A stretch of DNA of 64,000 nt from Amyloporia xantha (taxonomy: Eukaryota > Basidiomycota > Agaricomycetes > Polyporales > Adustoporiaceae), in contig JAYKKR010000037.1 of assembly GCA_036971615.1 (NCBI GenBank), positions 1 to 64,000 of the forward strand, written 5' to 3'. A program made the position numbers and the translations under genes. Shown here piece by piece: positions 37,168 through 58,246 of the stretch (position 1 is its first letter; each line of letters begins with the position of its first letter). The notes under the pieces were generated by a model that saw only the letters and a program-made list of their open reading frames with translations, was not told where the DNA came from and made no database searches.

Positions 37168-37931
37168 ATGACCTGGGTCCTCGGTTGGTCGCTTGATGAG
37201 GATTATGCTATTCGATTCGCCAAGGACCGCAAACTTGTTGCCAATGTCGAGGTGTCGGACTTGGAAAATCGTCTCGTCCTCGCTGCGGCCGATTATATCA
37301 GTGCGAGCACCAACATCGACGATGTCCTGTCCTGCTGGGAGGGTGACGATCTTGCAGCGGTCTTCAGTATCTATATCGACTACAGACATAGGAGGTATCC
37401 CCCGCGAGAATTAATCCGTTCCCGACTACTACCCGAAAGAAGGATAGATCGACTTCTCAAATTGTTGCGGACGGACGAACCCCCCAAATGGTATCGCTAT
37501 GATGATGGCACATATACACCCTGGGATGGCGAGCTGTGCGGCTTCTCCGCTGAAGACCAGGAACATGACCTTCAAGAGGAAAGCAAGTGGGCGCACATGT
37601 GGGAAGACTTGGAGGATGATACTGATCCCCAAATGGACGAGGAGGGAGATTGCGATGAAAACACTTATGCAGAGGATGAATATGATAAGGAAGAACAAGA
37701 AAAAGAAGGTGATGATGATGATTATAATCCAGATAATGAGAAGGAGGAAGGGGAGGAAGAGAAGGAGGGGCCTGATATTGAGGACGACGGCGAAAGGGTA
37801 CATGAATCGAATGTGCTAAGCTCTACTTTTGGTACGTGCACCTGTGTTTCTTGACTCGGACTCTTGAACATGCTCATTGATGGTCATATATCATACTCTT
37901 CACAGTTTCGAAATGTGTCATTGAGGCCTAA
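37168..37931 (+). CDS. Family A copy 1: orphan protein with acidic tail
   Basis: Not recognised. Exon 1 is 37168-37831 and exon 2 37906-37931. The same two-exon layout is conserved in the other copies, ending in TFVSKCVIEA. The protein begins MTWVLGWSLDEDYAIRFA. Landmarks are DVLSCWEGDDLA, IYIDYRHRRYPPREL, and a WYRYDDGTYTPWDGELCGFS motif. The last third is a Glu/Asp tail (about 70 residues), followed by a short conserved end (VLSSTFVSKC). There is no signal peptide or membrane helix, so it is probably cytosolic or nuclear. Length about 229 residues. An upstream in-frame GTG region was ignored because the ATG before TWVLGW is shared by all copies. This copy is fully open. The acidic tail resembles those of chaperones or nucleosome-binding proteins, but that is no evidence of function. 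Confidence 0.65.
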
Positions 37932-38064
37932 TAGAAGACTTTACAGTCACGTTCACATTCTGCTTGTCATCAAACTTTCGCCTCCGCTCGCCGTCCCTTC
38001 AAGTCGAGCTGGGAATGAGTTACCTTTTTTGCAGTTTGAGGAGGAAGCCCATACGCCTTAAGAT

Positions 38065-38340
38065 AGAGAGCAATACGCCTTCGTCGACGATGAGTCCCAA
38101 GATGATCATCATAAAAAATCCTCGCCGTGCCGCTAAAGGAAGATCATGACGACAGTGACTCGCAAGCTGACATTATGGAAGGCAACAAGGAATACGAATC
38201 GTGTATCAAAGAGAAGGCTTCTCAAGAGGATGGTGCCAAGATTGCGCTCGAAGACTCACATGAGCTGGACTCCACTGCTGGTACGTCTGCTAGCTTTCAG
38301 TTTTTTAAATCTTCCGCGTGTCATAGATTGGAAATCTATT
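38065..38340 (+). pseudogene. 3' fragment of a family A relative (copy 5 type)
   Basis: The segment reads EQYAFVDDESQDDHH, then after a frame change acidic sequence up to IALEDSHELDST and a GTACGT donor. It parallels the degenerate copy at 45.6-46.1 kb (ERYIFVGDDSENF..., then ATTGCGCTCGA). The 5' two thirds are absent. It lies directly upstream of the gene B remnant, as copy 5 lies upstream of gene B. Confidence 0.5.
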
Positions 38341-38880
38341 AAGTCTTATCAAGGCAGTGGCCTGTACCACGTCTAGTAGAGCTTCGAGGCCGCGTTCACG
38401 TATTTACCATCGTCAGTCCTGCCAGGAACAAAACTAACATCCAAGCATTTGGACAATGTTCAAAACCGGCAAAACGCGAAGACCACAACAAGCAAAGCTA
38501 ACAACACAGAACACGAAAAAATCCCTCCAGTTAAGACACAATCTTCGCATTTTTACCGGATCATCGTCTCTTCTCCCGTCTCTCGCGCACGCAAACGCTA
38601 CCTCCGAAATATGGCCATCATGTCCCGAGCGACAGGCGAGAGCTCTGGATGACGCCGGAAAAGGCGGTACGGCACCCTCAGAGCCATGGGGATAACGTAC
38701 GTCGAAGATCGCCCAGCTACCGGTAGCGGCGTAGTAGGTGCGGTCTTTGGGCTGCGCCTTGACCTTTGTTTTCAAAAGCGTGACGTTTAGACGAGGAGCG
38801 AGACATCGTAGCCGAATTCTCATTATCGTTGTTGTCCCAGACTACGCCCGACGTGCGCAATCTTCGGGGCGCATGTAGCG
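38341..38880 (-). pseudogene. 3' remnant of gene B
   Basis: The minus-strand sequence at about 38430-38830 matches the last part of gene B (46318-46640) almost base for base in stretches: LKTKVKAQ, then AIFDVRYPHGSEGAV, then S-rich sequence. The 3' UTR is also alike (the two share GTTAAGACACA and AAGGCAG segments). Frameshifts break the copy and its 5' part is missing. Confidence 0.7.
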
Positions 38881-39661
38881 TAGTATCAAGACTTATAAAG
38901 GCGCGGGACTACGGCATGAGTTGGTTGTCTGTCCTACGTGGCCTCTAATAGGCCGAAAGGAAGAATCTCATAGCTGACGTCGAGTGTGCCAGTTCAAAGA
39001 TTACTGTCACAACTGCAAGCTTCAGATTCAGTGCTGACTCGGAGTCCAATCCTTTCGATACAGTTCAGTGCCAGGCCTGCTACCTTATTATTTTCATGTA
39101 TACCTAGCGGCTATCCGAGTCGTCAAAGTGCCTACCGCCACACCTACCAGTACCTCGGGTCCGTCTGATGCATAGTATCTCAAATACAGTCTGAAGATTT
39201 GAACTACTGCATCTCAATTCGTCAGCCTTTTCCTCGGGTTTGAGGTCTCACGCTAGTTGTACTTCTGTGACCAGATTTCTGAGCTATGCGAGCCGGACTA
39301 AAGTTCCTCTATAACAGCATACTCATGACACTAGAGGTGACGAAGAATGGATGAACTGAGGATGGACGTCGACGCTTTCCTCTCCGGTAACTTGCTTGTC
39401 ACAGATGTTATGTGAAACCAGCTCCCGTGATACAATGCACAGACAAATACTCAACTAGTAGAAATCGATGAAACCACAACAAACGTATCTGCATAATCCC
39501 TTTGACTCTTCCTTAGCAACTTTCGCAATACACGTCAGAAGTCTCTGTCCGGATTCCACATGCGCATAGCTGCTAGCATCCGGGCCTTCTGATCTTGTGA
39601 GTCCGGAGCTGTCCATGGCAGCCATTCACTCCATAACAACCTGCATTCGATGCCGTCAAAA
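38881..39661. other. Intergenic, no gene seen
   Basis: A possible TATAAA near 38893 has no supported gene after it. Nothing else is recognised. Confidence 0.4.
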
Positions 39662-41061
39662 TCATGCATTCGGCACCGTAAGAAGGGCAACGAACCGATC
39701 GACAAACGCCGCAGAGGTTTGCCCCTCTGCAGTATTAGGAGCATCGCTTGATGGGTCCGATGAGCTAGAGAGCGGCATCGCTTTTTGAGGAGCTTTCCCC
39801 TTTCGCTTTCCCTTGACTTTGCTCTTGTCAATACTAGAAATATTAGAATCAGAGAGATTGTTTCTGTCACTGACACACGTTCATAAGGATAGGTGTCCAG
39901 ACGTACATGGTGTCGCTTGGAAGTTTCGACGAGCCGGAAGCAACTCGCGGTGTCGATGCTTGTGCAGAGGGAGTACCCTTCGTTTTCCCACTGTACAGAT
40001 ATGTTAATGGAATGACAAAGAGTATGTTCCTTTAATAATCATTGGGCGATTTTCACCTTCTAGTAGAACCACCAGTTAGCGCGGCAGGTAGAACTGTAGC
40101 CAGTCGACTAGAGGCTCTGGGTCAATTCAGATCGCGACCTCGCACAACATGAAACTCACGAGCTGCCAGCGGACGGCCCACCACGGGCACTTGTTCGCTC
40201 ATCATATCGTGTTCTGAATCATTGTCAACAAATCAAATTGCAGCAATAAAAACTCAACAGAGACACTCACGTTGAGACAAGGGAGCTGGCAGAACGGTGT
40301 GTCCTGGAAGCAGTTAGTTTTTAGGAGAAGTACATGAGGGCAAGAAGAACACCTTACGAAGCTTTCTGAAGATTCTCAAAACGGTACCACTTTCTAGTCG
40401 TGCGTGGTTCATCGGTGCTCTCAGGCTTGCGAGGACGATATGTGGCGTCAACATTATCAGAGAGCTTGTTGACATCGGTCTGCTCGCAATTGGCCCAAGA
40501 GAATTCGGTCCCGACACATATAATCGCAACAATACCACTGGCAGCCTGATGCTCCGAATAATACAACCTCAGCTGCCTGTGAGCATGGGTTCGAGCTTCG
40601 GTTTGTTTCGACAACATATTATCTTGGAATTCTTTCCTGAATGCGGGACCTTCGAGACCCTTCTTCACCGATGGAAAAGGCTTGACCTCGCATATGGCGA
40701 TGACGTTGTGGTCGTTGATAACACAGTCGCCTTGAAAGTACTGTGCCATTTCGGCATAGTTGGTGACTTTGTCCTTTGAGTCGATCTGATGAGCCTCACT
40801 ACGGAGACCATCCAGGAACAACAGAACAAAGTCAGGGATTTTAGTTTTTTCGATTACCTTGCCTCCGTTCGAAATTTGCTTATATGACAAGGCGTACTGT
40901 GGCCCTACGTAGGTAGTTCGCCGGCCGCCAGGAAAGAACCCGTAAAAGGCGTGGGTCCAGTAGCTGTAGAAGGGGTACTCGAGGCCTTTGGGATTGTATC
41001 GGACGAAGTTGGCTGCATAAGCCTGGGCGATATCCAGCTCAAGTTTGTGAGCAGGATCCAT
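39662..41061 (-). CDS. PD-(D/E)XK-like protein of unknown function
   Basis: Exon 1 starts at ATG 41061 and is open to about 40356. It continues through small exons (…VGRPLAA, GKTKGTPSAQAS…) to a last exon at about 39870-39662 ending FVALLTVPNA. The first part contains IPDFVLLFLDG and, about 50 residues later, NVIAICEVKPFPS. The spacing D...E-V-K matches the PD-(D/E)XK nuclease signature: Pro-Asp on one strand, Glu-X-Lys on the next. A conserved-looking aromatic region (YPFYSYWTHAFYGFFPGG) precedes it. The C-terminal half is basic and Ser-rich with an NLS-like KVKGKRKGKAP. This suggests a nuclear nuclease-fold protein, but catalytic activity is not shown. It lies between two family A copies on the opposite strand. 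Confidence 0.6.
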
Positions 41062-41353
41062 GTTGAATGTGCATGAAATCGAACTGATACTGCGAAGCAG
41101 ACTTTATATCCGATCCGGAGTCACACTGAAAAGATGATCACGAGGACAAAGGCCATGGCAAGCAATAGTTCGACTTTTTTGGAACAAGGTAGCGTACATA
41201 CTTAGACTAGGCCCCAAGATCTAGCACTAGTAGCGGAATCTTGTGATCATGGCCAATCACTTACGTAAGTTATCTGGAGGTGCAGATGAGTTTCGATGCA
41301 CGCCACACCACGAACATACGTCCTTCCCTCCATCATCACTGTCTTCCTGCAAA

Positions 41354-42072
41354 ATGGTTTGGGTTCTCGGTTGGTCACTTGCTGTGGATTATGGTATTCA
41401 GTTTGCCAAAGACCACAAACTCGTCACCAATGTCGAGAACGTCACAGACAGTCGTCTCTTCCTCGCTGCAGCCGATTATATCAGTTTGAATACAAACATC
41501 GATGATGTTTTGTCCTGCTGGGAGGGTGACCATCTTGCGGTCGTTTTTGGTATCTATGTCGATTACAGACACAGAAGATATCCCCCGCGAGAAATAATCC
41601 CTTCCCGCCTACCACCCGAGGAAATGATAGATCTACTTCTCAGGTTTTTGCGGACCGACGACCCTCCGCAATGGTATCGCTATGATGATGGCACATATAG
41701 GCCGTGGGATGGCGAGCTGTGCGACTTTTCCGCTGAAGACTGGGAATACGACCTACAAGAGGAACACAAGTGGAACGAGGATGGTACTCGTGTGGAGGAT
41801 GCGCATGATGAGGAAGAAGAACAAGAAGAAGAAGAAGAAGATGATGATGATGATCAAGATATTGAGGAGGAGGAGGAGGAGGAAGAGGATGAAGAGGAGG
41901 AGGAGAGTGTCGATGTCGTGGATGGAGGCAAAAGGGCACCGGAATCTAACGCGCTAAACTCGACCTTTGGTGCGTGCGGCCTTTGGTTGTATTGACTCGG
42001 ACTCTTGGACTTGTTCGTTGATGGTCGCATATCATATTCTGCACAGTGTCGAAGTGCATCATCGGGGACTAA
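41354..42072 (+). CDS. Family A copy 2
   Basis: Exon 1 is 41354-41969 and exon 2 42047-42072, ending TFVSKCIIGD. It begins MVWVLGWSLAVDYGIQFAKD and keeps every family landmark (DVLSCWEGDHLA, VDYRHRRYPPRE, WYRYDDGTYRPWDGEL). The acidic tail (about 45 residues, GAA/GAG/GAT codons) stays in frame and is followed by ESNALNSTF. About 213 residues with no stop, so this is the best candidate for a functional copy along with copy 1. Its 3' flank is near-identical in layout to that of copies 3 and 4 and runs into a Sos7 remnant. Confidence 0.65.
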
Positions 42073-42411
42073 TAGCGGACTTCACGGTCACGTTCACATC
42101 CGGCTTGTCACTACACTTTCTCCGTCCCTTTCACGGTCATGCAATGCATATCCGTGACGCTCCATGTCGCTCATGCTGTGGTATCTGCTCTCGCTGCTAT
42201 CGGTTCCATGTACTTTACAAGACCACTCGAAACTCCATCTCATGGTCTTCGCCTTCTGCATTGCAGTATTTTGTTTGGCTCGATACGATGAATAATCAGT
42301 GCTGTCGTCTATTCAATTCTTGTAATTCTGCTGGTCAGTATCAATATACACAGGTTGGAGGTCCCGAAACACTTGTCATACAGTTGAAACTACAATCGTT
42401 GAAATCGCTGA

Positions 42412-42590
42412 CTATAGCCCTGCTCTTGTTCGCCCAAGTATAGCCGCTATGAGGCCTGGGACATCGTTGGCCTGCGCATATGCTTCTTCAGACAGTCCTT
42501 TGATGTGAGCGTCCGCGAGCTGCCTCGTGTCGGGTACGAAAAGCACGAGAATGCGTATTGGTGGCCCGCCCGAGTCAGACGATTAGAGAT
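42412..42590 (-). pseudogene. 3' remnant of the Sos7-like gene
   Basis: The minus strand reads LFVPDTRQLADAHIKGLSEE, then AYAQANDVPGLIAAIL and RTRAGL plus stop, matching the last exon of the intact gene at 54449-55671. A segment coding for VGDVVG is deleted, and no upstream exons are present. Confidence 0.75.
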
Positions 42591-42705
42591 GTTTTGAGAA
42601 GCGTCCTAAGGAAAAGGGCTCCATCAAAGTCAGGCTGGCAAAACAGACTTCGTCCGGCCCGCCTATGCACACAGCGAAAGGTAGACATCAATGTATTAAA
42701 TGTCG

Positions 42706-42940
42706 TCTTTTCCGATTTTTCCGCCAACATTTGAGCTTGAAGAAGCAGGAACTACGCGCGGAGAGGATGCGTTTGTCGAATGCCCCACTCCGAGTGGTCG
42801 CCCAAGCCCTAATCTGCTTTGATTATGTGCAGTTGAATTTCAACCTGGAGGAAGCTGGTGACGCTTAGCAGGCGGATCCTGCCAGTGCGAGGGAAAGGGG
42901 CATTTCTGCGATATGTTGCTCCTTGAACTTTGAGAAGACG
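42706..42940 (-). pseudogene. Exon 1 remnant of the PIF1 gene
   Basis: The minus-strand sequence matches about 58483-58720 of the PIF1 helicase gene (shared segments include TTTGAGAAGAC / GTCTTCTCAAA and the region around GGGCTTGGGCGACCACTCGGAGTG). The helicase start and all motor exons are missing. It lies directly upstream of family A copy 3, the same order and orientation as PIF1 and copy 4. Confidence 0.75.
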
Positions 42941-43039
42941 CGGGCCGCGACACGATCACGAGATCGTCACTTCGACGCGAGACTAAATAGTACTAGCGCC
43001 GGAGAACTACCGCTACACTCATCACTGTCGTCGCACAAA

Positions 43040-43789
43040 ATGACTTGGGTTCTTGGTTGGTCGCTTGATGTGGATTATGGTATTCAATTCGCCCAGGATC
43101 GCAAACTTGTTGCCAACGTCGAGAACGTCACGAGGAGTAGTCTTTTCCTTGCTGCAGTCAGTTATATCAGTTCGAAAACGGAAATCGACGATGTCCTGTC
43201 CTGCTGGGAGGGCGACTGTGTTGCGCTGGTATTTGGTGTATATGTCGACTATAGACATAGGAGGTATCCTCCGCGGGAAATAATCCCTTCCCGACTACCA
43301 CCCGACAACATGATAGATCGACTTGTCAGGTTTTTGCAGACGGACGACCCCCCTAAATGGTATCGCTATGATGATGGCACATATACACCCTGGGATGGCG
43401 AACTATGCGAATTTTCTGCTGAAGACCAGGAATACAACCTTCAAGAGGAACACAAGTGGAACGAGGATGGTACTCGGGCGGAGGATGCGCATGAAGAACA
43501 AGAAGATGACCATGGTGATGATCAAGAACAGGATGAGGAGGAGGAGGAGGAGGAGGAGGAGGAGGAGGAGGAGGAGGAGGAGGAGGAGGAGGAGGAGGAG
43601 GAGGAGGAGGAGGAGGAGGAGGAGGACTGATATTGAGGATGATGGCGAAAGGGGACCGGAATCTAACGCGCTAAGCTCCACCTTTGGTACGTGCAACGTT
43701 TGGGTGTATCGATTAGGACTGTTGGACATGTTCATTGATGGTCACATATCATATTCTGCACAGTGTCGAAATGCGTCATCGGGGACTGA
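43040..43789 (+). CDS. Family A copy 3, acidic tail expanded and out of frame
   Basis: It begins MTWVLGWSLDVDYGIQFAQD and keeps all landmarks to WYRYDDGTYTPWDGELCEFS. At 43535-43624 there is an uninterrupted run of 30 GAG codons (30 Glu). It is followed at once by GAC and TGA (43628-43630), so the protein as read stops there. The conserved end (DIEDDGER...ESNALSSTF, donor at 43687, exon 2 43764-43789 with VSKCVIGD) exists in the next frame. The repeat expansion or contraction has therefore shifted the frame by one. If the stop is real, the product lacks only the last roughly 30 residues. Confidence 0.6.
43535..43624 (+). repeat. (GAG)30 microsatellite
   Basis: A perfect GAG tandem run inside family A copy 3, coding for polyglutamate. 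The tails of the other copies hold mixed GAA/GAG/GAT codons. Confidence 0.95.
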
Positions 43790-44131
43790 TAGCAGACTCG
43801 ACGGTCACATTCACATTCGGCTTGCCATTACATTTTCCCTCCATCCCCTTCCACGGCCCTACGACGCACGTCCGTGACGCTCCCTGTTGCTTATGCTGTA
43901 GTATCTGCTCTCGTTGCTGTCAGTTCCATGTACATCACCGATCAAGTCGAATCTTCCGTCTCATGGCTTTCATTTTCGGCAAAATGCTATTCCGATGTGT
44001 TGCTTCGCTCGATGTGATGGCTAATGTGTGCCGTCCTCTACTCAATTCTTACAATTCCGATAATCAAAATCAATACACACAGGTTAGGGGTAACGAGACA
44101 GATATCATAAACTAGAAACTACAATCGCTGA

Positions 44132-45060
44132 CTATGGTCCTGCCCTCGCTCGCGCGAGTATAGCTGTCAGAGGCCTGGGACATCGTTGGCCTGCGCATAT
44201 GCTCCCACCATGTCTCCCACTTCTTCAGACAGTCCTTCAATATGTGCATCCGCGAGCTGCCTCGTATAGGGTACAAAAAGCAGGATAATTCGTATTGGTC
44301 TTGGTGGCCCCCCCGGGTCAGACGATGGTGTGATGGAATAGTACATGAGTTGAAGTTCATTCTCGGACACAGAACGGAAAGATTTGAGCGATGTAAGCGA
44401 AGCCGTGAACCTGTTCGCAGAACATGCTATATGAGGACCAGCAGCAGGAGCTCCCAATTCGACGTACCAGTCATGCAGGCTGACCACCCTTCCGTCTTCA
44501 ACCTCGGCCTGCTCTGACCAGCTTCTCTAAGTCTGCTCTCTCCATCCGCAGTCGCTCAACCTCCCTTGCGCCATCCTTCACTTTCTCCTTGACTTCATCG
44601 ATAGTCTCATTCAGATTCTGGAGCTCGTCGTCCAGCTCCTGCATCTCCGAGACTTGTGGGTCGAGTCGGGCGTTGGCAGACGCAACGGTAAGGCGAGGAT
44701 GAGGATGTTCCTGGCGAGGATCTTGCTCGCGAGTGTCGACGCCTCATCAGTGAGTGCTTTGGCCTTCACATAATCTGCGTCTGGATGTAGTTCGAAACTA
44801 GGTGGATACTAAGATTCAAATTGACACACCTTGCTCAACGACTCGGAGGAGCCAACTGTCGAATATCACCATCCTTCTCAACTAACCTGGCCTTTGCAGC
44901 CTTGAGAGCGTCTTTCTCCTCATTTTCGAGCCTGAGGTTCTTATTGTCCTCACCATTGATGTTGGGTGCATCGTCACTCACAATCGTCTTGATGTAATGG
45001 TCTGCTCGCAAGGGATTGGATCTTGAGCCTTTGCGACAATGCCTACGGCCAAGAGGCTCA
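44132..45060 (-). pseudogene. Truncated Sos7-like pseudogene
   Basis: Minus-strand segments match the intact copy: YIKTIVSDDAPNINGEDN, ALKAAKARLVEKDGDIR, a shortened coiled-coil exon (the part around ILDAR...LRQAHPHP is fused by deletion), SLHDWY, ENELQLMYYSITPSSDPGG and ADAHIEGLSEEVGDMVG. The first exon (MDAEHTAKLEA...) is missing and unrelated DNA precedes 45060. Frame breaks and the deletion make a full product unlikely. Confidence 0.75.
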
Positions 45061-45540
45061 CACCTCTCGACACCCACCGCAGGATTACAGGGAGCACAAC
45101 GAGGAACTTCATGAGTAGATGAGGTATGTGTACCCGCAGTACTAACATAGATGTTCAGGCTTGTAGTGGAACAGTGTCGAGGTTGTTGTCCGATCCCGTA
45201 CGAATCTAACCAGGCTGACTTTATGTTGAGCCCGTTTCAACACAGCATTAATCATATATAGAGACGAAATTGTGTGCTGTACCAAAATGCCTGGATTATC
45301 CACCAACGAAAGAATACCACACGGCGACCTGTAGAGCTTGTGTCGTCTGCACTCCGCAGTCATGAAATCTTTCTACTGCAGCTCTCCCTGTGCCGGTGAC
45401 AGTGTGCCACCGTCAACAGTCAAATAAACAGACTCACCAGATCGAGATAAACACCGCCTCGTGAAGTTATCCGCGGTTTGTATTACCATGTATGAAGAGA
45501 TGACCGTTTGAACTCAGAGAATGCTGCAGGGACACGGGTA
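45061..45540. other. Intergenic, no gene seen
   Basis: Only short frames without recognisable content. This is the junction between the Sos7 pseudogene and the degenerate family A copy 5. Confidence 0.4.
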
Positions 45541-45549
45541 AGTATTGCA

Positions 45550-46060
45550 TTTGCCAATTGTGTGCTCATCAAGATCTGACGGCGATCAGATTCATCGAGG
45601 ATGCTATGAATACGCACAAATTTCGAAGCTTGCCACTACCTCCTCTCTCAATCGTATGAGCATATGACTTAGGGTTTTCAGATGGCCCATCTACCACGAC
45701 TACGGAGTCCTCCTTGTGCTCGGTAACATATCGATGGTAGACATACGAGACTGCGTCCGCCGAGGATAGCGTTCTCGAGATCATCGCTCCTCGAGCTCGG
45801 AAAATGACGACTTGCTGTGCTTTTACAGGTTGATGAAGCCAAATGACGCCGATTTTATCATGGCATATATACTTTTGAAGATGGAGAGCGGTACATCTTT
45901 GTCGGCGATGATTCCGAAAATTTTCAGAAGGAAAGATGATGACGACAAGGTGACAGCGAATCACCGTGGCCGCCTACGAGAAAAGGCTGTTCGAACGGAC
46001 GATGACTAGATTGCGCTCGAGGCGGCAGACGAGTTAGTTTTCACTGATGGTACGTGTATG
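45550..46060 (+). pseudogene. Degenerate family A copy 5
   Basis: DNA-level similarity to the middle of family A runs from GACATACGAGACTG (compare GACATAGGAGGTAT) to a block readable as YTFEDGERYIFVGDDSENFQKE, which aligns with the YTPWDGEL...SAEDQEY region. Stops follow. The acidic end ATTGCGCTCGA...GATGGTACGTG matches the fragment at 38065-38340. It is more diverged than copies 1-4 and frameshifted. Confidence 0.45.
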
Positions 46061-46317
46061 AGTTTCCAGGAATTTGGAATGACTATGGAAATTTCGCGTG
46101 CTGAAGACCTAAAATCTATGGAGTCTCATCAAGGCAGCCACCTGCCCGGCGTGTAGTAGGCCTTTGGGGCTGCATCGATGTATCTACCACCACAACCAGT
46201 CCTGCCAGAAACGAAAACAATATTTATGCATTCAAACAACGCTCAAAGCTAGTGAAATGCGAAGATCACAACGAGGAAAGCTAAATAACAAAACGAAACG
46301 TGAAAAAAGTCCTGCAG

Positions 46318-48613
46318 TTAAGACACAGCTCTCGTAGTCCTGCCGAATCGTCGCCTCGTCTCCGCCTCTCGCGCACGCAAACGCTGCTTCCGAAGATTCG
46401 CCATCATGTCCCTAGCGACAGGCGAGAGTTCTGAAGACGACGCCGGAGAAGGTGCTACGGCACCCTCAGAGCCATGGGGATAGCGTACGTCGAAGATCGC
46501 CCGGCTTCCGGTGCGCAGTGGCGTGGTAGGTGCAGTCTTTGGGCTTACACGCTGTGCTTTGACCTTTGTCTTCAAACACGCAGCCTTTGGACTAGGAGCG
46601 GGAGAGATCTCAGCTGAGTTCTCTTTGTCGTTATCGTCCCACTCTGCGCCCAATGTATGAGAACGACGAGTGCGCAATTTTCTGCGGGCATGCTTTTCGA
46701 GACCAAGCCCATTTTCGACTCGCGGGTAAACGTCCACACCCGCGGTCCTGCGCTGCTTTCCCGAAGCATTAGCGGCGGATATAATCTTCCGATCTCGTGC
46801 ACGAGGTCCTCTAGGTGCGGATGCAGAGGTCCTGCTGTTTGCACGCGCTGCAGAAACACTGTGGTTATTATGAAGCGACCCTCCATCAGAAGTTGCAACC
46901 CAGGTATCCAAAGTCTGTCGGTGCTTGGCCTGTGATGGAACAGAGGGGTCTGAGAGGTCTTGTGAGCGTCGTGGGCGTGGCCCGCGGGGTATTTTGGAAG
47001 TAGGTATGTTGTTAGCTCCGCCTTCGATAGAAGTTCGTGTACTGGCTCGATTAAGCGCCGTTTGGTGACTCGGTCCAACCCCCATCTCATCCGAACAGGG
47101 TTCTTCCGGGAGTTGGCGAAGATCAGGGTTCGGCGGGATGGATTCGGGTACATCTTCACGCTGCGTGTCATGCGCGGCATAGATTGCAAGTCTGGACGTA
47201 GATTGAGAGCGCACTCTGTTTGTCATCGAGGCGGCCGCAGTCGACAGTTTCATCAGCGTCGCAGTCTGCACCTGCGCATGTGAGACACTTGAATGTTCTT
47301 GAGACGCATCTGGTGATCGGGGACTAGACGCTGCCCACACCGTGATTGGTGGAGACGCTTCGTTCCCCATTGGCTGCCAATGATCATGGGCGGCTAACGT
47401 GGTGGTGGATAGCAAGAGCGTAGGAAGGGATTGCGTCGCAGGATACCCGAGCATAGACTTGCGGCGCTCAGTAAGGAAGCCAAACACTTCTGATGCACGC
47501 TGCGGCGTCTTAGGACCTAGGGCAACTGCTGATAGCGATGGTTCAGGCATGGAGATAGTGCCGCTCCTCTCTGGGCCGGTGTCGGTAGCACCGCTGTACT
47601 CCACCTCCATGGACGAAATGACGGGAAATTGTGTAGAGAAGGATAGTTCTTGGGATAGCTCCTGGTCTGGTGAATGATCTGGATTCTTAAATATGCGTGC
47701 TTTTGAAATACCGTCTGGATAGTGGGTATCGACATTGCGGGGAGTAACAAGTGGGAGAGAAGAAGTTGACGAAAAGGGTGAGTCGCGTTCCCTAAGATAT
47801 TGTCAGTTTTAAACACTCATGCAAAGCCAAAATCATGCCTACCTCAAGAAACGTTCCGCCCAGGAGATGTCTCCTTCAGTGGCTTCGCCACGCTGGTCTG
47901 GGTCGCCCAGCAGCTGGCGCAGTGTTGAACCAGAACGCTTAATCTGCTCGTGACCTTGCGGGTGCTGGATCGGGGCAGGCGTCGGGGGTGTGTTCGAGAA
48001 GGCGTTGGCATCGAGACATCCCCGGTCATCATACATGTTCAGCAGGCTCGCGACGGACGGGTCGCGGCGTAGAGCATGCAGGCAACTTTGATCGCGGGGG
48101 GTAAACAAAACATCTTTCAAACGTGGACGATCATCGTCGGTATCAGGCGTGCGTGGTTCCTCGCGGTTGAGGTCAGAGTCGTTGCGAGATATTCTAGGGT
48201 TGGCATTGGGAAATTCGGTGCGTGAATGAAGGGTGCGCCCATGCACTGTTACGATATATGTGTTACTGCGCTGGATGCTGGTAGCAGACCGGGCTGGAGA
48301 TAGCGGAGGCGCCGCGGTGAGGTGATGCGCTGCTACATTCGATGAGTGACTGCTGGCATACAATATTACAATCTGGCTTACGAAGAGGAGGTACAGATAT
48401 ACTTTCGGTCTGTAAAGTATCCGCCCAGCGGGCAGATGTAGACCGTAAAAGTCGATTGGCATCTGTGTCGGACTGACGATTCTCAACATGCACGATCCGG
48501 CCCTCTGCGTCAACCTGGGACTGCACGGCCTCCGCACCCAGCTTCTGTTTCTGCTTGTTCTTCTTGGACCTCCTGCCGCTTCCGAGAGATAGAAATCGTT
48601 TGAAGAATCCCAT
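46318..48613 (-). CDS. Gene B: disordered protein with KEN box
   Basis: Not recognised. Three exons on the minus strand: from ATG 48613 to about 48380 (MGFFKRFLSLGSGRRSKKNK...VPPL), then from about 48330 to 47843 (PAHHLTAAPPLSPARS...ISWAERFL), then from about 47790 to the stop at 46318. Intron borders GTAAGC...GTAG and GTAGGC...TTAG keep the frame. About 730 residues, nearly all polar and Ser/Pro/Arg-rich. The N-terminus is amphipathic and basic, and the middle has LRQLLGDPDQRGEATEGDISWAERFL. Near the C-terminus DDNDKENS contains a KEN box, a degradation signal recognised by APC/C-Cdh1 in cell-cycle proteins; the conserved end holds FDVRYPHGSEGA and RDMMANLRKQRLRARE. A 3' remnant lies at 38.4-38.9 kb. 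Function unknown. Confidence 0.7.
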
Positions 48614-49850
48614 GGCACTCAGAGCTACCTGAAAAGATACTGGTCAGGGTATGAGAGTTCAACTTGCAATAGACGCGCGCTTGTTTCGACGCGACTGAAT
48701 CACGTGCTATCGGTAACAGGTCACGCGGCCCTTTGACAGCAATTGAGGTATGTTTTGGCTGCGGTAACATTCAGACCTCTATCTCGGAACAGAGACAATA
48801 CATAGATCAAATAATTAGGCAACCCTTCTTCCAGTCGTAACATCATGGTAGCGTTGTATTCTAACAGGCAAGTACCCAAATATGCCGAGATCTTCTTTCG
48901 CTGCAGCGACATTGTCACACGAGGCTCCAGGGATCGCGACGTTCTTCCGTTCCAGTGTCACGGTCATGTACGTCTGCAGGGCTGGCTTCTGTAATGGCAG
49001 AAATCCTATGTTCGCTAGAGAATGTGGAAAGGGCGGGTGGATGTTTGAGATTCTGTCCGTAAGCCAAAAGTACACTACATACCTTTGTGGACGAGTGATC
49101 CCGGACAACGCCTGCAATGGAGAAACCGTCGGAGTGGAAGCGTGCAACGGCTCTCTTATTTTCCTGACCTGCTGGCGCACATTGAGTCTACCACTGAAAT
49201 CAGTACAAGAGATTGTAGGTACGAAATCGATTCACGTACGCGGCGAGGAGCGTGTTCGCGTACACTAAGAGGCCCATCGTTTATCAAAATACTCTAGATT
49301 GTAGGAATGATGATGTCTTACGTGTGCCTGTCGGAATATAAAATACCATAGCGAGCTGGCTGGAGTGGAAAAGACAATAGACAAACTAATCAATGGATAG
49401 ATGCTTAGTGCAGAACATCACTAGTAAAGAGACACCCACAATCGTAAGGAGGGCTGACTGCATCAGGCTTGGTTAGAATCGTAGCAAGATAGTTTCGCGC
49501 AATTAGTGCGACTGCGTGATTGTTACTATCAAAAATGGCGAAATCATGTGCTCACAGAAGCAATATCCCTCGTTGTATCGTATATGCGATCAGGCTTGAT
49601 ATAATCCTATCCATTCTGAATGCAACCTCACATCAATTATTCTGAATCATGCAAATCTCAGGATACAAACATCTGATGGTGAGTTCGTACCATTTGCAAC
49701 AAGGTGCATAATGAAACCGCAAAATACACATCTGCAAGCAGAGTGCTAGTTGTTTCCAGAATTATTGATATCTATGTGAGTATGAGCACGGATATAGAGC
49801 ATTGAACTGTGAGGTCAAGCATACCGCATTGTCCTGTAGTTCTGTGGTGA
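48614..49850. other. Intergenic, no supported gene
   Basis: The longest frame is 128 codons at 48882-49268 (+), opposed by an overlapping one on the minus strand. Neither has recognisable content or splice support. Confidence 0.4.
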
Positions 49851-49859
49851 AATGCGAAT

Positions 49860-51044
49860 CTATATTGATCCTGAATAACACACAGAAGTGTCAGCAGCAG
49901 TATATTGCGATAAGAATGACTGGACGTACAATCGGTAGGTGATACCTGATATGAGATACACATCAGCTACATGTAAGCCAGTCTCGATAGGTGAGCCAAC
50001 ATCATCGTACTTACTGATACCACAGCCTGACGCATTCGCAAGATCAATGACAGCTAGTAATGTGAACCAGACATAAAAGCGTACACAAGCTGAGGAAGGA
50101 AAGCAAAAGCTATGTGACGCAAAGATCTGAGTATCAACAAGTGCATTCTCAGAAGACATTTCCTTACCGCAGCGATCGTCAGAGGAAGCCTGTAATAACC
50201 CTTTTTCAGCCTTGGTACAAGAATTAATACCGTTGATGGAAATCGCAGTCCTCAGTGAGAGATGCACATTTCCATATAGCGTGTGTGAAGAAGCTGTTAA
50301 TGATACAAAACTTTCGTAAGCATTATGTCAAACATGTATCGAACGTGATGCAGGCGTTTGGACTAAGAACACCATCAAAGCCTAAAATATCTTCAGGATA
50401 AGCTACAAATGTCCCTCTCAGTAATGCTTACCTCGAAAGCTATGAATAGCTGCAACGAGAATTAGCTAAATTCAAACAGGCAAAATAGGCTAACCGTACA
50501 GATGTCGGTCTGGAAGGATCAACGTCAGGAAAACACCGTCGACCAGAGATATAAGCATATAGGGAAGCTTACTTCCCGACGTAGAGAAGTCCAATAATAT
50601 TCGTGTGGTTCTTGATGAGGCCCATCCACACTACCTACGCTGCATGAGCTGAAAGTTTGATAAATGAATTTGTGGTATATAGTCACTTGAATTGACAATG
50701 TGTTCAACAAAGTATCCAACATCCTTGTCAAAAGTAAGACAAAGTTTAATGAGTTAATAAGTGTTCACGAACAATACGACGGCGACCTGTGTCAACAATA
50801 TGCCGTCAGTGGTGAGACGACGTAGCTGTATTACGTGTACTCACAGCGGCTTTCAGGAAGACCGGATCCGTCGGAAAATGTAAGTAGTAGTACACCGCTT
50901 GACCGCACGTGCAACCATACAGTCTACAAATGTCCCTGTGAACAAGCGCGTCCAGAAGCAATAGGGCACATACAACGCAGAGACCACAACACCGATTAAG
51001 TACATGCCTAGTGAATCGTCCAGAGAGAAGTCCACAGCAGTCAT
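49860..51044 (-). CDS. Seven-helix membrane protein, DUF6534-like, possibly decaying
   Basis: The ATG at 51044 opens with FSLDDSLGMYLIGVVVSAL. Splicing out a 38-nt intron then gives LDICRLYGCTCGQAVYYYLHFPTDPVFLKAA and VAVVLF. This matches the first helix and the LYG.T..Q...Y...P.D...LK block of a large basidiomycete family of predicted seven-helix receptors or channels of unknown role. Further on, MLDTLLNTLSIQVTIYHKFIY and RFYVWFTLLAVIDLANAS are helix-like, but the frames between them need many introns and one junction (near 50715) does not close in frame. The C-terminal part near 49900 is uncertain. TATATA lies about 65 nt upstream of the ATG. It may be a gene with many short exons or a recent pseudogene. 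Confidence 0.5.
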
Positions 51045-52356
51045 AGCAGCGTCCTTAGAATCTCAGAGTCACTGTAGGCGGTTCTCATTTCAAGTGTCTG
51101 GTTCGCTTATATATGCATAAGTCAGCGCTCAAAAGCAGACACGCGCGGCAGGGCAGCTACCCAAAGGATAGTGAGCGGACATAGTAACCGCCCAACAAGA
51201 CCACAAGCGGTTGATGACTGCTAGTACATTGATATTCCTGGAGAAAAAAAATTGTAGAGCGCTGATGAGGAATCGCTGGCAGTGTAAACATGTATGGAAT
51301 TATGCCGCCCACCTGGGAGATAATCAACACTTCGCAAAGTTCGCATCTGTCTATCTATCCATAGCTATCTATCCCTCCACTTCTACATAGCCGTGTACTT
51401 GTTCGCAAAGTAGAAACACGGTACCTGATTGGCTCAGACACGAGACCACATTCGACCCGACAATCTGACGCGGGTCATACCTTTCATTCCTGAGGCCCTG
51501 CCTCGTTGATGCTGCATTACAAGTACATGTGGAGTGCCGGACCTGAGAAAATGCTGTGGGCTCTTGTAGGCTCTGCGTCCTGTGCGGACCCGCGCCTTCG
51601 CGTGGCCCCGAGGGAGCGTCGCCGCCTCCCGGATGTTATTTTCCCCGTGCGCCGCTCGCTGCTATGTAAGGCTGTAAGTAGAGTCTGCGTCCGAACCAAG
51701 TCTGCACCCCTACAGGTTTCCGGGGGTGGGGAGAGGGAGGGGCATGCTCCGAGTCTCTGGCGTGCGCCCCTGTCTACATGCCAGTGACGCTCCCCATCGT
51801 CACCGTCGCACCATCATAGACATCACCAATTTCGAGCAGCAGCAATTCGGTACAGTACGTACATTACAGAGACCAGGACTCTTCCAGTCACTGTAGTAGT
51901 GGCGCTGCTACTGTACCAAGCCTCTAGGATGCCCGACATCACCAAACTGCGAGCAGCGTTATAACGTGTTACACCAGTTGGCAACTAATCTGTACGTTAC
52001 TCCAAATGTAAAGCCATATAATTCAAAAATAATTGATTTACGAGATATACTTGTGCAAACATATCGTCAGATATTTGAAAACACTCACGTATAATCTACC
52101 GGTCATAAGCTATTATAATCTGTTAGAATTAAATATAGCATCAATGCCAACTAAACTATTTTGTATGCACACTAGATGTCTGGCCGAATTTATGGGTGAA
52201 ATTTATAAAGACAAAAATATATATTTTGACCGGATGCTCGTTGTCGGAAGATAAGCGCCAATGTTCACATCACTAAATTGAAAATTCATGACTCTCGATT
52301 CATGGTCTCGTTTTGCTGAGACCGTGCCAGAATGCAAAGCCTGGTCTATTATGAAA
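51045..52356. other. Intergenic, 5' flank of the hairpin element
   Basis: This includes a short TCTATC-type simple repeat near 51350-51380 and, from about 52000, a markedly AT-rich stretch with only short frames. No gene is supported. Confidence 0.4.
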
Positions 52357-53089
52357 TTACAGCCGTTTGCAGAACATACGGCGCGTGATCGAAATTTCTT
52401 TTTTTGGACAAATATATACATTCTACAGTATATCTGTATTAGCTCAGTCAATACATGTTGGATTGTCTTGAAAATTGGAGCAATGAAATGGCATTGTAAA
52501 TCCAGAGGGGATGGTCAACTCAGATTTTTAAAATAATAAGTTTGAACACTTTACAAAAAAGTCATCATGTAAAGTCAATATATCTGGATTTCTGTGGTTC
52601 CTGGGTCTTTCTGGGCTTATCCCTGAATATACATTGTCCATACCACTCATATAAAGGGGACTGCAAATTTATTTTGTGTGTACAATATTTCTGTTGGTTT
52701 CTGGAAAGATGGAAATCTGGCATAGAACAGTGCAAGAACCACATGTCATATGAAAAGGCTACAAAGAGCCAAAATAAATTTGCAGTCCCCTTTATATGAG
52801 TGGTATGGACAATGTATATTCAGGGATAAGCCCAGAAAGACCCAGGAACCACAGAAATCCAGATATATTGACTTTACATGATGACTTTTTTGTAAAGTGT
52901 TCAAACTTATTATTTTAAAAATCTGAGTTGACCATCCCCTCTGGATTTACAATGCCATTTCATTGCTCCAATTTTCAAGACAATCCAACATGTATTGACT
53001 GAGCTAATACAGATATACTGTAGAATGTATATATTTGTCCAAAAAAAGAAATTTCGATCACGCGCCGTATGTTCTGCAAACGGCTGTAA
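52357..53089. mobile_element. 733-bp foldback (inverted-repeat) element
   Basis: Two arms of about 320 bp, 52357-52677 and 52770-53089, are reverse complements of one another with no mismatch seen by eye (at most a 1-bp length difference). They enclose a 92-bp loop. The outer ends read TTACAGCCGTTTGCAGAAC. No coding capacity and no obvious target-site duplication were found. It could be a foldback or MITE-type element or a locus giving a long hairpin RNA. The perfect arms imply recent origin or homogenisation. Confidence 0.85.
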
Positions 53090-54448
53090 GCCGTGCCCAG
53101 CTGCAATCTAGGCGGTTTTGTGCTTACGCCGGACCGGACAGAGTCTTGACTATCACATAAATACGGAGGTCATCTCGAGGGTACCCGCGCGTAGCCGCCT
53201 GCGCTCGCGCCCTGAGTCCTACTACTAGCTGTAGGAGTTCCTCCGACTCGAAGACCGGTAAGTGTCTGAGCCCGTTCTTGTCCCTAACAATCATAGCTGC
53301 AAGTACCTTACGGCACTGGTAAGTCCAAAGTAGTTCAGGTATCTAACCTTTGTACTGACTGCTAGCGAACTTCGTCAATACTCAGGACTACTGTAGTACA
53401 GATCAACGTGGTGGGGACCTCTAGGTCTATTACGAGTTGACTAGCACACATGCTGACCACATTTTTGATAGATCCGCCTCAATCTGACTTGCAGTCGCTG
53501 AAGTACTAATCTGCTCTTTCATCGCAACGGTACTATCAATTAATATATTTGACTTCTGTCTAGACATACTAGAATAATCCAGCCCTCAACTGGGCATCAT
53601 GTGCGGCCGGGTGATGGATGATATACTGGATGATGCTCAATTAGTATTGCTGTTGTCTATTTATGGTATATGGTCAGCAACGGAGACTACGGACAACGAA
53701 CGTAGAATAGTGAGGTAGTATTCTTGTAGATAATTGAATCCACTTCAATCCAGGAATATACAAAATTGATAATCTCTGGTCCCTGAGTTTGCAAATTGCG
53801 CACAAACGATGCGGAATTACAGCGCACCGGTCCATCTGGATCATCCATCGCTCGCTTATTATTGGGTCCAGAATAAATCCAGAACAGATCTATATTTACA
53901 GTGACCATATTTTTTCGACATCTCATAACAGCATATAACAAGCAGAAGAATTCCACCTTTTGGACCTGTTGGCAATCGCTCTCAGCCATATAATTCAATA
54001 TATGGGTGGTTATAATTTTCGTACATGTTCTATTGATTTTGCCTTATATCTCGACATCATATAGCTATATGAAGAATCTCGAGGTTTGGTGATGGATAAG
54101 ACAGGAGGGTTGATATAAGCGGCAGCTGGGGACCACACGGAAAAAAAGGCGCACTGCCAATTTCTTCAGAAAACCGCGTAATTCCTGCAGCTGATGGTCA
54201 TCGCGTACGTCGGATTGCTGGCACTGGCCAAGTCGATCGTCGCGGTAGCTACTAGAATTGAGAGACTGGAGGAACGCGCACACGTGATCTAAGACGCGTC
54301 CAGATTGGCAAGGTTGAGTGAACGCTGAGTACTGAGTCCTTTGACTACTTCTTCCATCCTAACCACTGATTGTGGTCACCACTACCCTTATAAGGATACC
54401 TCACATAATATTTTTGGACGCAGCGTCTCAACTGCGATTTAACCCACG
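53090..54448. other. Intergenic, no supported gene
   Basis: A 103-codon minus frame at 53687-53998 is open but has no recognisable content. The part next to 54449 should contain the Sos7 promoter. Confidence 0.4.
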
Positions 54449-55671
54449 ATGGACGCCGAACACACAGCCAAACTGGAGGCAGCTCGTTCCCTTCAGTCAA
54501 CGCTAGAGAATACGTCATTCCATATTGTCGGCTATCGAGATCAGTTTGATTCTCAGCGAAGCTCATCTGAAAATGAGGTCGGGCAACTGTTCCAAGGTGG
54601 GGCGGCACTGACTGATCCGGCCATCATCGCCTTTCATGTTGCATCGCAAGTGGTGAGGAGTTCCCAGGTGCTATGTAGGAAGACTTATACGAGGCTTCCG
54701 TAGGCGTTCTTGCGAAAGCTCAAGATCCAATACCTTGAGCAGAAGGCGAAAGACCAGTACATCAAGACAATTGTGAGCGATGATGCACCCAATATCAACG
54801 GTGAAGACAATGAGAAGCTTAGGCTCGCAAACGAGGAGAAGAAGGCCGCTCTCAAGGCCGCAAAGGCCAGGTTAGTTGAGAAGGATGGTGACATTCGAAA
54901 ATTGGCTCCCCTCGTCGAGCAAGGTGAGTACGAATATGAATGATGGTCATGATATACATATACTTCCGACTTACATCTCGGCGCAGATTATGTGAAGGCC
55001 AAAACACTCACTGATGAGGCGTCGACACTCGCGGGCAAGATTCTCGATGCGCGTTTGCAGCTCACTCGATTACGCCAGGCACACCCTCATCCTCGCCTTA
55101 CCGTTGCGTCTGCCAACGCCCAACTCGACTCACAGGTCTCGGAGATGCAGAAGCTGGACGATGAGCTTCAGAATCTGAACGAGACTATTGATGAAGTCAA
55201 GGAGAAAGTAAAGGATGGCGCAAGGGAGGTTGAGCGACTGCGGATGGAGAGAGCGGACGTAGAGAAGCTTGTCAGAGCAGGTAAGGACGAGGTTGAAGAC
55301 GGAAGGGTGGTCAGCCTGTATGACTGGTACGTCGCATTGGGAGCTCCTGTTGCTAGTCCTCATATTCTACGAACAGGTTCACGGCATCACTTGCCTTACA
55401 TCGCTCATTACACTCGCTTGAATCTTTCCGTTCTGCGTCCGAGAATGAACTTCACCTCACGTATTCCATCACGCCATTGGCTGACCCGGGCGGGCCACCA
55501 AGACCAATACAAATTATCCTGCTTTTTGTACCCAATACGAGGCAGCTCGCGGATGCACATATTGAAGGACTGTCTGAAGAAGTGGGAGACGTGGTGGGAG
55601 CATATGCGCAGGCCAACGATGTCCCAGGCCTCATAGCAGCTATACTCGCCCGAGCGAGGGCAGGACTATAG
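54449..55671 (+). CDS. Sos7-like kinetochore coiled-coil protein, intact copy
   Basis: Probably a subunit working with the KNL1/Spc7 module of the outer kinetochore, as Sos7 does in fission yeast. Four exons: about 54449-54649, 54707-54921, 54988-55326 and 55378-55671. They give MDAEHTAKLEAARSL..., the FLRKLKIQYLEQKAKDQYIKTIV block that marks the family, a long coiled coil (EMQKLDDELQNLNETIDEVKEKV...LRMERADVEKLVRAG) and a compact C-terminal domain (HLTYSITPLADPGGPPRPIQIILLFVP...). About 350 residues without stops. Two broken copies lie at 42.4 and 44.1-45.1 kb. It is convergent with the dead family A copy 4. Confidence 0.78.
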
Positions 55672-55928
55672 TCAGTGATTGTACTTTCTACTGTATGATA
55701 TGTATGTTCCTCGTTACCTCCAAACCGTGTGCATTGATTTTGATCATCTGAATTGTGAGAATTGAGTAGAGCACGGCACACAGTAGGCATTACATTGAGA
55801 GAAGCAAGATACCACACCATGAGCGATAGGGAGCGTCACGGACATGGGCCGCAGGACCATGGCAGGGAACGGAGGAGAAAGTATAATGACAAGCCGTATG
55901 CGCAAGTGACCGTCATAAAACTCTGCTA

Positions 55929-56652
55929 TTAGACCTCGATGATGCATTTCGACACTGCAGAATATGATATATGACCATGAATAGACATGTTCAAGACTCA
56001 AGAGTCGATGCACCGAAATGCCGCACGAACCAAAGGTGGAGCTGAGCGCGTCAGTTTCATGTGCCCTTTCGCCATCATTTTTGATAGCCCTCTCCTATTC
56101 TTCTTCCTTCTCTTCCCCCTCCCCCTCCCCATCCTCTTCAACTTCCCCCTATTCATTATCTCGATCATCATCATGATCATCTTCTTGTTCTTCCTCGTCA
56201 TGCGCGTCCTCCACACGCGTACCATCCTCGTTCCACTTGTGTTCCTCTTGTAGGTCGTATTCCTGGTCTTCAGCGGAAAATCCGCACAGCTCGCCATCCC
56301 ACGGCCTATATGTGCCATCATCATAGCGATATCATTGCGGAGGGTCGTCCGTCCGCAAAAGTCTGAGGAGTAGGTCTAGTTTTTTCTCGGGTGCTAGTCG
56401 GGAAGGGATTACTTCTCGCGGCGGACACCTCCTATGTCTGTAGTCAACATAAATACCAAAGACCACCGCAAGACCATCGCCCTCGCAGCAGGACAGGACA
56501 TCACGGATTTTTGTGTTCACACCGATATAACTGGCTGCAGCGAGGAAGAGACGATTGTCCGTGACGTTCTCGACATTGACGACGAGTTTACGGTCCTTAG
56601 CGAATTGAATACCATAATCCATATCAAGCGACCAACCGAGAACCCAAGTCAT
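55929..56652 (-). pseudogene. Family A copy 4, inactivated
   Basis: It starts MTWVLGWSLDMDYGIQFAKD and reads well to TDDPPQ. There the codon for the invariant Trp of WYRYDD is TGA (near 56332). Beyond it the frame continues (YRYDDGTYRPWDGELCGFS...) but meets two more stops in the acidic tail. The end SSTF and exon 2 (VSKCIIEV, stop 55929-55931) are still recognisable. One of the usual CWEGD residues is also changed (CCEGD). Its promoter is interrupted by the 1.37-kb element. Confidence 0.85.
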
Positions 56653-56765
56653 TTTGTGCGACGACGGTGATGAGTGTGGTGGTGGTTCTCCGGCTAGTAC
56701 TATTTAGTCTCGCGTCGAAGTGACGATCTCGTGGGGCATAGGAAAAGTGCCGCACGCGGACGTCA

Positions 56766-56812
56766 TCGGAGGGACGCCTGTGAGACGCCTGCGAGACGCC
56801 TTCGAGACGCCT
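56766..56812 (-). repeat. Left subterminal GACGC 11-bp repeats
   Basis: Four units of the form GAGACGCCTGT with small changes in their last bases. The orientation is opposite to the right-hand cluster. Confidence 0.8.
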
Positions 56813-57169
56813 GTGCCACACAGCTTGGCGCTTAGGAGACGCGTCCCAGACGTTCAACTTAGACAAGCTTGAGCGACGCACTTGCCTGGCTCGCCGCTTC
56901 GTCATCCCAAGGTGTATCCCTCACGTAGTCTTCTGTAATGTTTTGCTATCATATTGCCTGGACATCAGCTCCTATATACTAGCACTGTAGGCCCCAGTGT
57001 CGCTTCGGCGGGCGTCGGTTACTCACACTCCTGGCTTCATCCGAAATGGCTCAGGTTGTGATTCAGGCAAAAGTGTCTTGGTGGCTCCGAGTTTCATTTC
57101 TGTAGTTCGTGTTAAGATCAGTGACCTCTTCATGGTCATGGTGAGTTTGTATTTCTGCACCGTCTCCCC

Positions 57170-57395
57170 TGCGTCTCGCTTGCGTCTCCCCTGTGTCCCC
57201 CTTGCGTCTCCCGTGCGTCCCCCTTGCGTCTCCCGTGCGTCCCCCTTGCGTCTCCCGTGCGTCGCGTTTGTGTCTCTCGGGCGTCGCGCTTGCGTCTCTC
57301 GGGTGTCGCGCTTGCGCCTCCCGTGCGTTGTGTTTGCGTCTCACCTACGTCTCTTGCGTCTCACCTGCGTCTTGCTTACGCCCTCTGCGTGTCTG
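57170..57395. repeat. Central 11-bp / 22-bp minisatellite
   Basis: About twenty units alternate TTGCGTCTCCC and GTGCGTCCCCC, forming a 22-bp dimer that is exact for three copies and then diverges. All share the GCGTC core of the flanking clusters. Confidence 0.85.
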
Positions 57396-57965: not shown

Positions 57966-58032
57966 TGCGCTCACATTGCGTCTATGTTGCGTCTGTGCTA
58001 CGTCTGTGCTGCGTCTGTGTTGCGTCTCTGCC
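57966..58032 (+). repeat. Right subterminal GCGTC 11-bp repeats
   Basis: About six units of TGCGTCTGTGC-type sequence, inverted relative to the left cluster. Confidence 0.8.
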
Positions 58033-58246
58033 GCGTCTGAGTGGCATCTGGGACGCGTCGCGCAAGCGCCGCAGAGGCGTCCGCTGACGGCAATTTCCCC
58101 AGGCCCGATCTCGTGATCGTGTCGCGGGTGGGTGTCACGCGTCCACATTCAACTTCGTTGCTGCCACCGGGTGCTGCACGGCTGTATACTCGTCTGCACA
58201 CTTGTCCTGGACTTGTTATTAACATAAACTCACTACTCGGGTAGAG

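What the first reader, a model, noticed from the sequence alone, without database searches (positions are those of the whole stretch)
37168..56652. An unrecognised protein family amplified at least five times in 20 kb
Copies at 37.2, 41.4, 43.0, about 45.6 and 56.6 kb share the start W-V-L-G-W-S-L, CWEGD, YRHRRYPPRE and WYRYDDGTY.PWDGEL, an acidic tail of variable length, and a tiny second exon coding VSKC(V/I)I. I match it to no family I know. Two copies are fully open, one has a shifted tail, two are dead. This is the strongest candidate here for something undescribed: fast local birth and death of a lineage-specific gene.
Basis: partly seen in the sequence, partly recalled or inferred. Interest (0 to 1): 0.85.

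Follow-up and report, generated by a model that had tools for sequence, protein, structure and literature searches.

The report
Polypore-fungus gene family, repeatedly amplified
A small, uncharacterised fungal gene family with a basic arm and an acidic tail has multiplied in place in this genome, and separately in other polypore fungi; most copies still look like working genes, but what they do is unknown.

Summary
The window holds four family members with a full-length core (starts 37168+, 41354+, 43040+, 56652-) and one relic (45724-45933). The unnamed 46.8 Mb fungal assembly has 18 full-length-core sequences and 2 relics, which I group as 11 core loci, 7 of them as allelic pairs. The core is open in 16 of 18. 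Pooled over four allelic pairs, core dN/dS is 0.22 (Fisher p = 5e-7): selected, not drifting.

It is not confined to this species. Profile searches find 22 relatives outside the genome; the 14 named ones are hypothetical proteins of five Polyporales genera. Grifola and Gelatoporia copies form separate clades, so expansion happened repeatedly. No curated family cut-off or convincing PDB match was reached.

My best guess is a non-secreted polyanion-binding protein checked by its own acidic tail (low confidence). The amplification predates the haplotype split; what is recent is the loss of single alleles.

The parts
37168..37931 (+). Copy 1: exon 1 37168-37831, candidate intron 37832-37905, exon 2 37906-37931 (VSKCVIEA). 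Open; allele at C43:42749.
41354..42072 (+). Copy 2: exon 1 41354-41969, candidate intron 41970-42046, exon 2 42047-42072 (VSKCIIGD). Open; allele at C43:57128.
43040..43789 (+). Copy 3: core open; first stop at 43628, just after the GAG repeat 43530-43626; candidate exon 2 43764-43789 is out of register. Allele C43:59007 reads through the tail.
45724..45933 (+). Copy 4: relic of the 3' half of a core, three stops; partner relic at C43:61655.
   Evidence: E 0.0099; flank shared with copy 1
55929..56652 (-). Copy 5: broken core (stop at 56334), candidate intron 56030-55955. Allele C30:150763 has an open core.
56733..58106 (.). Repeat of about 1.37 kb inserted about 81 bp before the start of copy 5 on this haplotype; related sequence on several other contigs; ATCTCGTG at both edges; absent from the C30 allele.
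54449..55671 (+). Sos7 kinetochore-protein gene (several exons by my reading), tail to tail with copy 5; probable source of the Sos7 pieces carried by other copies. Only the piece 54704-54940 was matched to Pfam.
   Evidence: PF20882 E 3.6e-22; frames; the piece 54449-54700 had no Sos7 match
44000..45048 (-). Sos7 fragment carried downstream of copy 3 (83% identical to 54698-55807).
   Evidence: (PF20882 E 1.1e-7 on 44835-45236)
42266..42578 (-). Remnant matching the 3' end of the Sos7 segment, downstream of copy 2 (72%).
38210..38849 (.). Flank of copy 1 that matches 45979-46651 beside copy 4 (72%): second type of duplicated unit, overlapping part of a 494-codon open frame.

Best explanation
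This is a protein-coding gene family of polypore fungi with no curated family entry. Each gene encodes (i) a compact core of about 115 residues with strand-helix-helix-strand-strand-helix-strand order; (ii) a positively charged arm between the third strand and third helix (residues 72-89); (iii) a signature PxWYRYDDGTYTPWDGEL; (iv) a variable, low-complexity, mostly acidic tail, followed in most copies of the main clade by a tiny candidate second exon. Shown here: the family, its spread, purifying selection on the core, the predicted fold and the charge pattern. Inferred: the protein stays inside the cell and binds a polyanion (nucleic acid or an acidic protein face) through the basic arm, and the acidic tail competes for that arm and so sets how tightly it binds, as acidic tails do in some HMG-box proteins (recalled). 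New copies arise as segmental duplications of about 1-2 kb that drag along pieces of the neighbouring gene; tails are lost by slippage in GAG repeats, and whole alleles by stops and frameshifts.
For: Pooled allelic dN/dS 0.22, p 5e-7; 16 of 18 cores open; third codon positions vary most: 85 of 122 against 48 and 42 in the 11 close open copies. Core model pLDDT 87.6, pTM 0.80, five models agreeing at 86-88. Arm net positive in 33 of 33 of the 37 aligned sequences that have it, mean +4.7, although its sequence differs between clades; the other five segments average -2.1 to +1.0. Tail D+E above K+R in 16 of 16 open own copies and 19 of 21 outside proteins with a tail. No N-terminal stretch hydrophobic enough to suggest a classical signal peptide (13-residue maxima 0.12-1.24 on the Kyte-Doolittle scale, 18 copies). 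Units of 1-2 kb with Sos7 pieces.
Against: No binding, expression or localisation evidence of any kind. Two outside proteins (P0011, P0015) have basic tails and a third (P0005) is nearly neutral there. The acidic tail is cut short in C31_96k and C30_121k (stop) and knocked out of register in copy 3, while their cores stay open, so a full tail may be dispensable. Acidic low-complexity tails are common and may be a by-product of GAG/GAA repeats. The near-invariant signature residues could equally mark a ligand pocket.
Confidence: 0.3

Rival explanations
1. The core is a small-molecule-sensing or catalytic domain (ACT-like), the near-invariant WYRYDDG/PWDGE signature forms the ligand pocket, and the acidic tail is only a solubility spacer.
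Confidence: 0.25
2. The family takes part in genetic conflict (non-self recognition, or defence against viruses or transposons), and copy-number turnover is the outcome of an arms race.
For: Repeated separate expansions; 3 of 7 inferred allelic pairs carry one damaged allele; copies lie in repeat-rich, structurally polymorphic DNA.
Against: Pairwise dN/dS is below 1 in every pair with usable dS (highest 0.77); PADLOC gave one weak hit in 37 members (E 0.061), and PADLOC covers prokaryotic defence only. The SAVED hits (2 of 37, best E 0.00046) do not recur across the family: P0013 scores 12.3 bits against a cut-off of 33.
Confidence: 0.2
3. The copies are cargo or the protein of a mobile element, which explains their number.
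For: Many copies, scattered on at least six contigs; repeats nearby.
Against: Units have different ends and carry pieces of ordinary neighbours (Sos7); in this genome copies are few (11 loci). I did not search systematically for terminal repeats or target-site duplications around the units.
Confidence: 0.07
4. The copies are decaying relics without function.
For: In the window copy 4 is a relic and copy 5 is broken; C30:120274 is broken too.
Against: Pooled dN/dS 0.22 even between alleles; simulated random change of the observed size kept both lineages open in 0.6-10% of trials for the seven pairs tried, while 16 of 18 cores are open. The 96k/C30_121k pair alone gives 0.57, on three changes.
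Confidence: 0.05

Closest known systems
Hypothetical/uncharacterised proteins of Polyporales: Grifola frondosa A0H81_06858, 06861, 06863, 05731, 05732; Gelatoporia subvermispora CERSUDRAFT_114652, 75319, 75316, 113803, 123191, 94160; Laetiporus LAESUDRAFT_722322; Cerrena QCA50_008413; Rhodofomes EVJ58_g4633
   Same: Same family by profile search (E 3e-61 to 6e-6): same core and signature, mostly acidic tail; neighbouring locus numbers suggest clusters there too
   Different: 31-44% identity to the 37.2 kb copy for the ones that cover most of the core; separate clades; a different arm sequence (KKARTAEEAK type) in many; no function assigned
Ferredoxin-like (alpha/beta plait) domains: ACT, ribosomal protein S6, VapD, designed ferredoxin fold 4rjv
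   Same: Same order of strands and helices in the predicted model, with one extra helix; they head the structural list
Tad2-like domain (PF11195)
   Same: Weak Pfam hits in 4 of 37 members, best E 0.02
   Different: Not significant; absent from the other 33 members
SAVED domain (NF033611)
   Same: Weak NCBIfam hits in 2 of 37 members, best E 0.00046
   Different: P0013, one of the members hit, scores 12.3 bits against a cut-off of 33, over a stretch that runs into its acidic tail

Membership tests
Ferredoxin-like fold | beta-alpha-beta-beta-alpha-beta order | tested here: met
   strands 3-8, 53-58, 61-71, 107-111 with helices 11-20, 32-48 and 90-100; the second helix is extra. Strand pairing in space was not examined
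Ferredoxin-like fold | convincing structural alignment to a member | tested here: inconclusive
Tad2-like (PF11195) | Pfam match at significance across the family | tested here: not met
   4 of 37 members, best E 0.02
SAVED domain (NF033611) | NCBIfam curated cut-off (33 bits) | tested here: inconclusive
   2 of 37 members, best E 0.00046, bit score of that best member not seen; P0013 12.3 bits
Secreted fungal effector | N-terminal signal peptide | tested here: inconclusive
   no strongly hydrophobic N-terminal stretch; no signal-peptide predictor available
Mobile-element gene | fixed ends with terminal repeats and target-site duplications | tested here: inconclusive
   homology ends differ between pairs and units carry Sos7 pieces; terminal repeats were not searched for systematically
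Acidic-tail-regulated binder (works like HMGB) | tail lowers binding by the basic region | not testable with these tools
   needs protein; only the charge pattern is seen
This Polyporales family | profile match over core and signature | tested here: met
   own copies and 22 outside proteins

The most novel reading that the evidence does not exclude
Polypore fungi possess a family of small polyanion-binding regulators of their own, with a core not represented among solved structures, in which expansions and tail-length changes at GAG repeats tune binding strength, so that each species and each haplotype carries its own set of strong, weak and dead variants.
Probability: 0.12. Interest if true: 0.65.

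Novelty: new member of a known kind. Interest (0 to 1): 0.42.

Why it matters
Order-restricted gene families without known function are a large unexplained part of fungal genomes. This one is small, clearly under selection, expanded separately in several polypore genera and predicted to fold well, so it is a tractable case. Within one assembly it shows alleles open on one haplotype and dead on the other, which lets gene loss be studied as it happens.

Tried and rejected
Domain matches: Pfam on one copy and on 18 and 37 members, NCBIfam, PHROGs on 18 members and PADLOC on 37 gave only scattered weak hits. SAVED, E 0.00046 in 2 of 37 members, was followed up: none of the 6 proteins, and of the 10 only P0013, at E 0.091; the second, stronger member was not identified before the cap. 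I treat it as chance, not as excluded. Tad2-like at 0.02 (4 of 37) likewise. PDB by sequence gave nothing below E 1.4. Fold searches gave nothing significant (viral library, first model only, best E 0.08); a fold missing from these lists is not excluded. Rfam gave nothing in 36500-58500.

Prokaryote origin: a scan of bacterial and archaeal genomes with one short pattern gave one locus, L069. Its frame resembles a flavin-binding split-barrel protein (recalled) that happens to contain WYRYDDG; I reject homology.

Neighbour: I first took the carried gene for kinetochore protein Spc7 from memory; Pfam shows Sos7.

An apparent rule that homology between copies stops just before the start codon came partly from my own filter; without it upstream homology continues beyond inserted sequence in some pairs, so I drop it. 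A first impression that copy 1 is a mosaic of two subtypes was not needed: the tree allows it to branch early among the short-tailed copies; I did not test recombination.

Literature: searches for six locus tags and three signature peptides found no paper; (listings and abstract starts only) showed none on this family. No paper was opened.

Full report
OBSERVATION. The window is G000:C31:1-64000 of an unnamed 46.8 Mb assembly in 60 contigs. With the 151-residue start of the 37.2 kb copy the genome search returned 21 rows. One copy (C30:120274) takes two rows, so these are 18 full-length-core sequences and 2 relics. In the window: 37168+, 41354+, 43040+, 56652- and the relic 45724-45933. Elsewhere: C31 (96724-, 97564-), C43 (42749, 57128, 59007, relic 61655), C30 (120274, 121096, 150763), C34 (1), C4 (1), C37 (1), C3 (3). 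The tool says such counts are lower bounds. The core runs open to the GEL of the signature in 16 of 18; the broken ones are the 56.6 kb copy and C30:120274.

HAPLOTYPES. C43:40001-44681, 54854-58446 and 58678-64686 match window 34425-48756 at 94-97%. The extra 10 kb in C43 carries a 1807-codon frame that looks like a LINE-type retroelement (my reading, no domain search). Window 59500-63900 matches C30:144887-149312 in reverse at 95% and 54393-54997 matches C30 at 96%. I therefore pair the copies as alleles: 37k/C43_42k, 41k/C43_57k, 43k/C43_59k, 56k/C30_150k, 96k/C30_121k, 97k/C30_120k and C4/C37; paired loci align at 92-99% over 1.8-3.5 kb. That leaves 11 core loci. The pairing is inferred. 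How C43 and C30 relate to each other is unresolved, and most flanks outside the window were not obtained.

AGE AND SELECTION. Synonymous divergence (NG86, core to GEL) is 0.34-0.64 among the three open-core window copies and 0.065, 0.118 and 0.129 between them and their alleles; one cross-haplotype paralogue pair (37k/C43_59k) is lower, 0.235. So the amplification is older than the split of the two haplotypes. Over four allelic pairs with open cores, 19 nonsynonymous changes on 1138 sites and 25 synonymous on 329 give dN/dS 0.22 (Fisher p = 5e-7). Singly the pairs give 0.25, 0.27, 0.09 and 0.57, the last on three changes. Distant pairs are saturated; among the 120 pairs the highest ratio with usable dS is 0.77 (37k/C43_59k). 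A simple simulation of random change kept both lineages of a pair open in 0.6-10% of trials over seven pairs.

GENE MODEL. In 11 copies examined (10 close open ones plus the dead 56.6 kb copy; C31_97k and C30_120k lack the site, C4/C37 and the C3 copies are too different) a candidate intron of 69-77 nt with GT and AG ends is followed by V-S-K-C-(V/I)-I, with VAKC once; the reading phase fits in 10 of 11, copy 3 being the exception. Exon 2 differs slightly less between copies (0.162) than the intron (0.214) or 3' flank (0.301), which is weak support. In C31_96k and C30_121k a stop precedes it. C4/C37 have a possible but different short second exon.

RELATIVES. One sequence found 3 proteins, a first profile 8, a second 22 at a limit of E 10, all at E 5.6e-6 or better. 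Fourteen are named: 5 Grifola frondosa, 6 Gelatoporia subvermispora, 1 Laetiporus sulphureus, 1 Cerrena zonata, 1 Rhodofomes roseus; all five species are Polyporales. The tree has 33 rows (16 own, 17 of the 22 others; P0006, P0008, P0018, P0019 and P0022 dropped as fragments). It puts the three Grifola rows in one clade (98/98) and the five Gelatoporia rows, with two unnamed rows, in another (96/91). The window genome's 16 rows fall in the remaining group (97/96) with two near-identical unnamed proteins and Laetiporus, whose long branch makes its place unsure. So the family has expanded separately more than once. The window species is probably a polypore; no call names it.

HOW COPIES ARISE AND DIE. 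The 43.0 and 56.6 kb units share 2 kb in inverted orientation, including a segment of the neighbouring Sos7 gene (54698-55807 against 45048-44000, 83%). Sos7 lies at about 54449-55671 (PF20882 on 54704-54940, E 3.6e-22); of the 8 matches to a Sos7 query only this one and C30:152044 are full length and open. A Sos7 remnant with stops also lies beside the C34 copy. The simplest reading is that the Sos7 locus is a source of duplicates; the direction is inferred. The 37.2 kb unit and the 45.7 kb relic share another flank. On loss: the 56.6 kb allele has a stop, and a 1.37 kb repeat about 81 bp before its start that C30 lacks, with ATCTCGTG at both edges; C30:120274 is shifted while C31_97k has an open core; copy 3 has lost its tail register while C43_59k keeps it. 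That is 3 of 7 pairs. Two further insertion differences lie upstream of starts: about 231 bp at -329 in 43k/59k and about 1.07 kb at -50 in C4/C37.

FUNCTION. Nothing here shows what the protein does. I put the electrostatic binder first because the basic arm and acidic tail are the two properties kept while sequence drifts; a ligand pocket at the signature and a role in genetic conflict are close behind.

NOVELTY. No match reached a curated cut-off that I saw, no PDB sequence matched convincingly, and text searches by locus tag and by motif found no paper (open-licence PMC only). The family seems undescribed in what I could search, but restricted, locally expanding families are a known kind.

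Noticed in passing
window 51930-54099, nested 52357-53089: A dispersed repeat is split by a nested element of about 733 bp that matches its own reverse complement at 92%, i.e. a near-perfect palindrome. It occurs in at least 24 other places in the assembly; two uninterrupted host copies show an 8-base overlap at the junction, as a target-site duplication would.
   Followed up: partly
C43:44681-54854 (L049/L050): About 10 kb present on one haplotype only, with a 1807-codon frame resembling a LINE-type retroelement, between the alleles of copy 1 and copy 2.
   Followed up: partly
window 56740-58106: The insertion next to copy 5 contains 11/22-bp minisatellite arrays and is related to sequence on C2, C7, C15, C17 and others.
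   Followed up: partly
window 46318-47802 (-) and 40354-41103 (-): Two long open frames (494 and 249 codons) between the copies without any Pfam match; part of the first has a duplicated fragment at 38210-38849.
   Followed up: partly
window 23300-26500; C43:17689-20889; C20:572858-575564: Reported as 100% identical on three contigs (partial on C20), probably overlapping contig ends; partner haplotypes are only partly resolved in this assembly.
   Followed up: no
C4:894503 and C37:230363: Allelic copies 99.4% identical over 1.8 kb but with about 1.07 kb extra sequence 50 bp before the start on C4.
   Followed up: no
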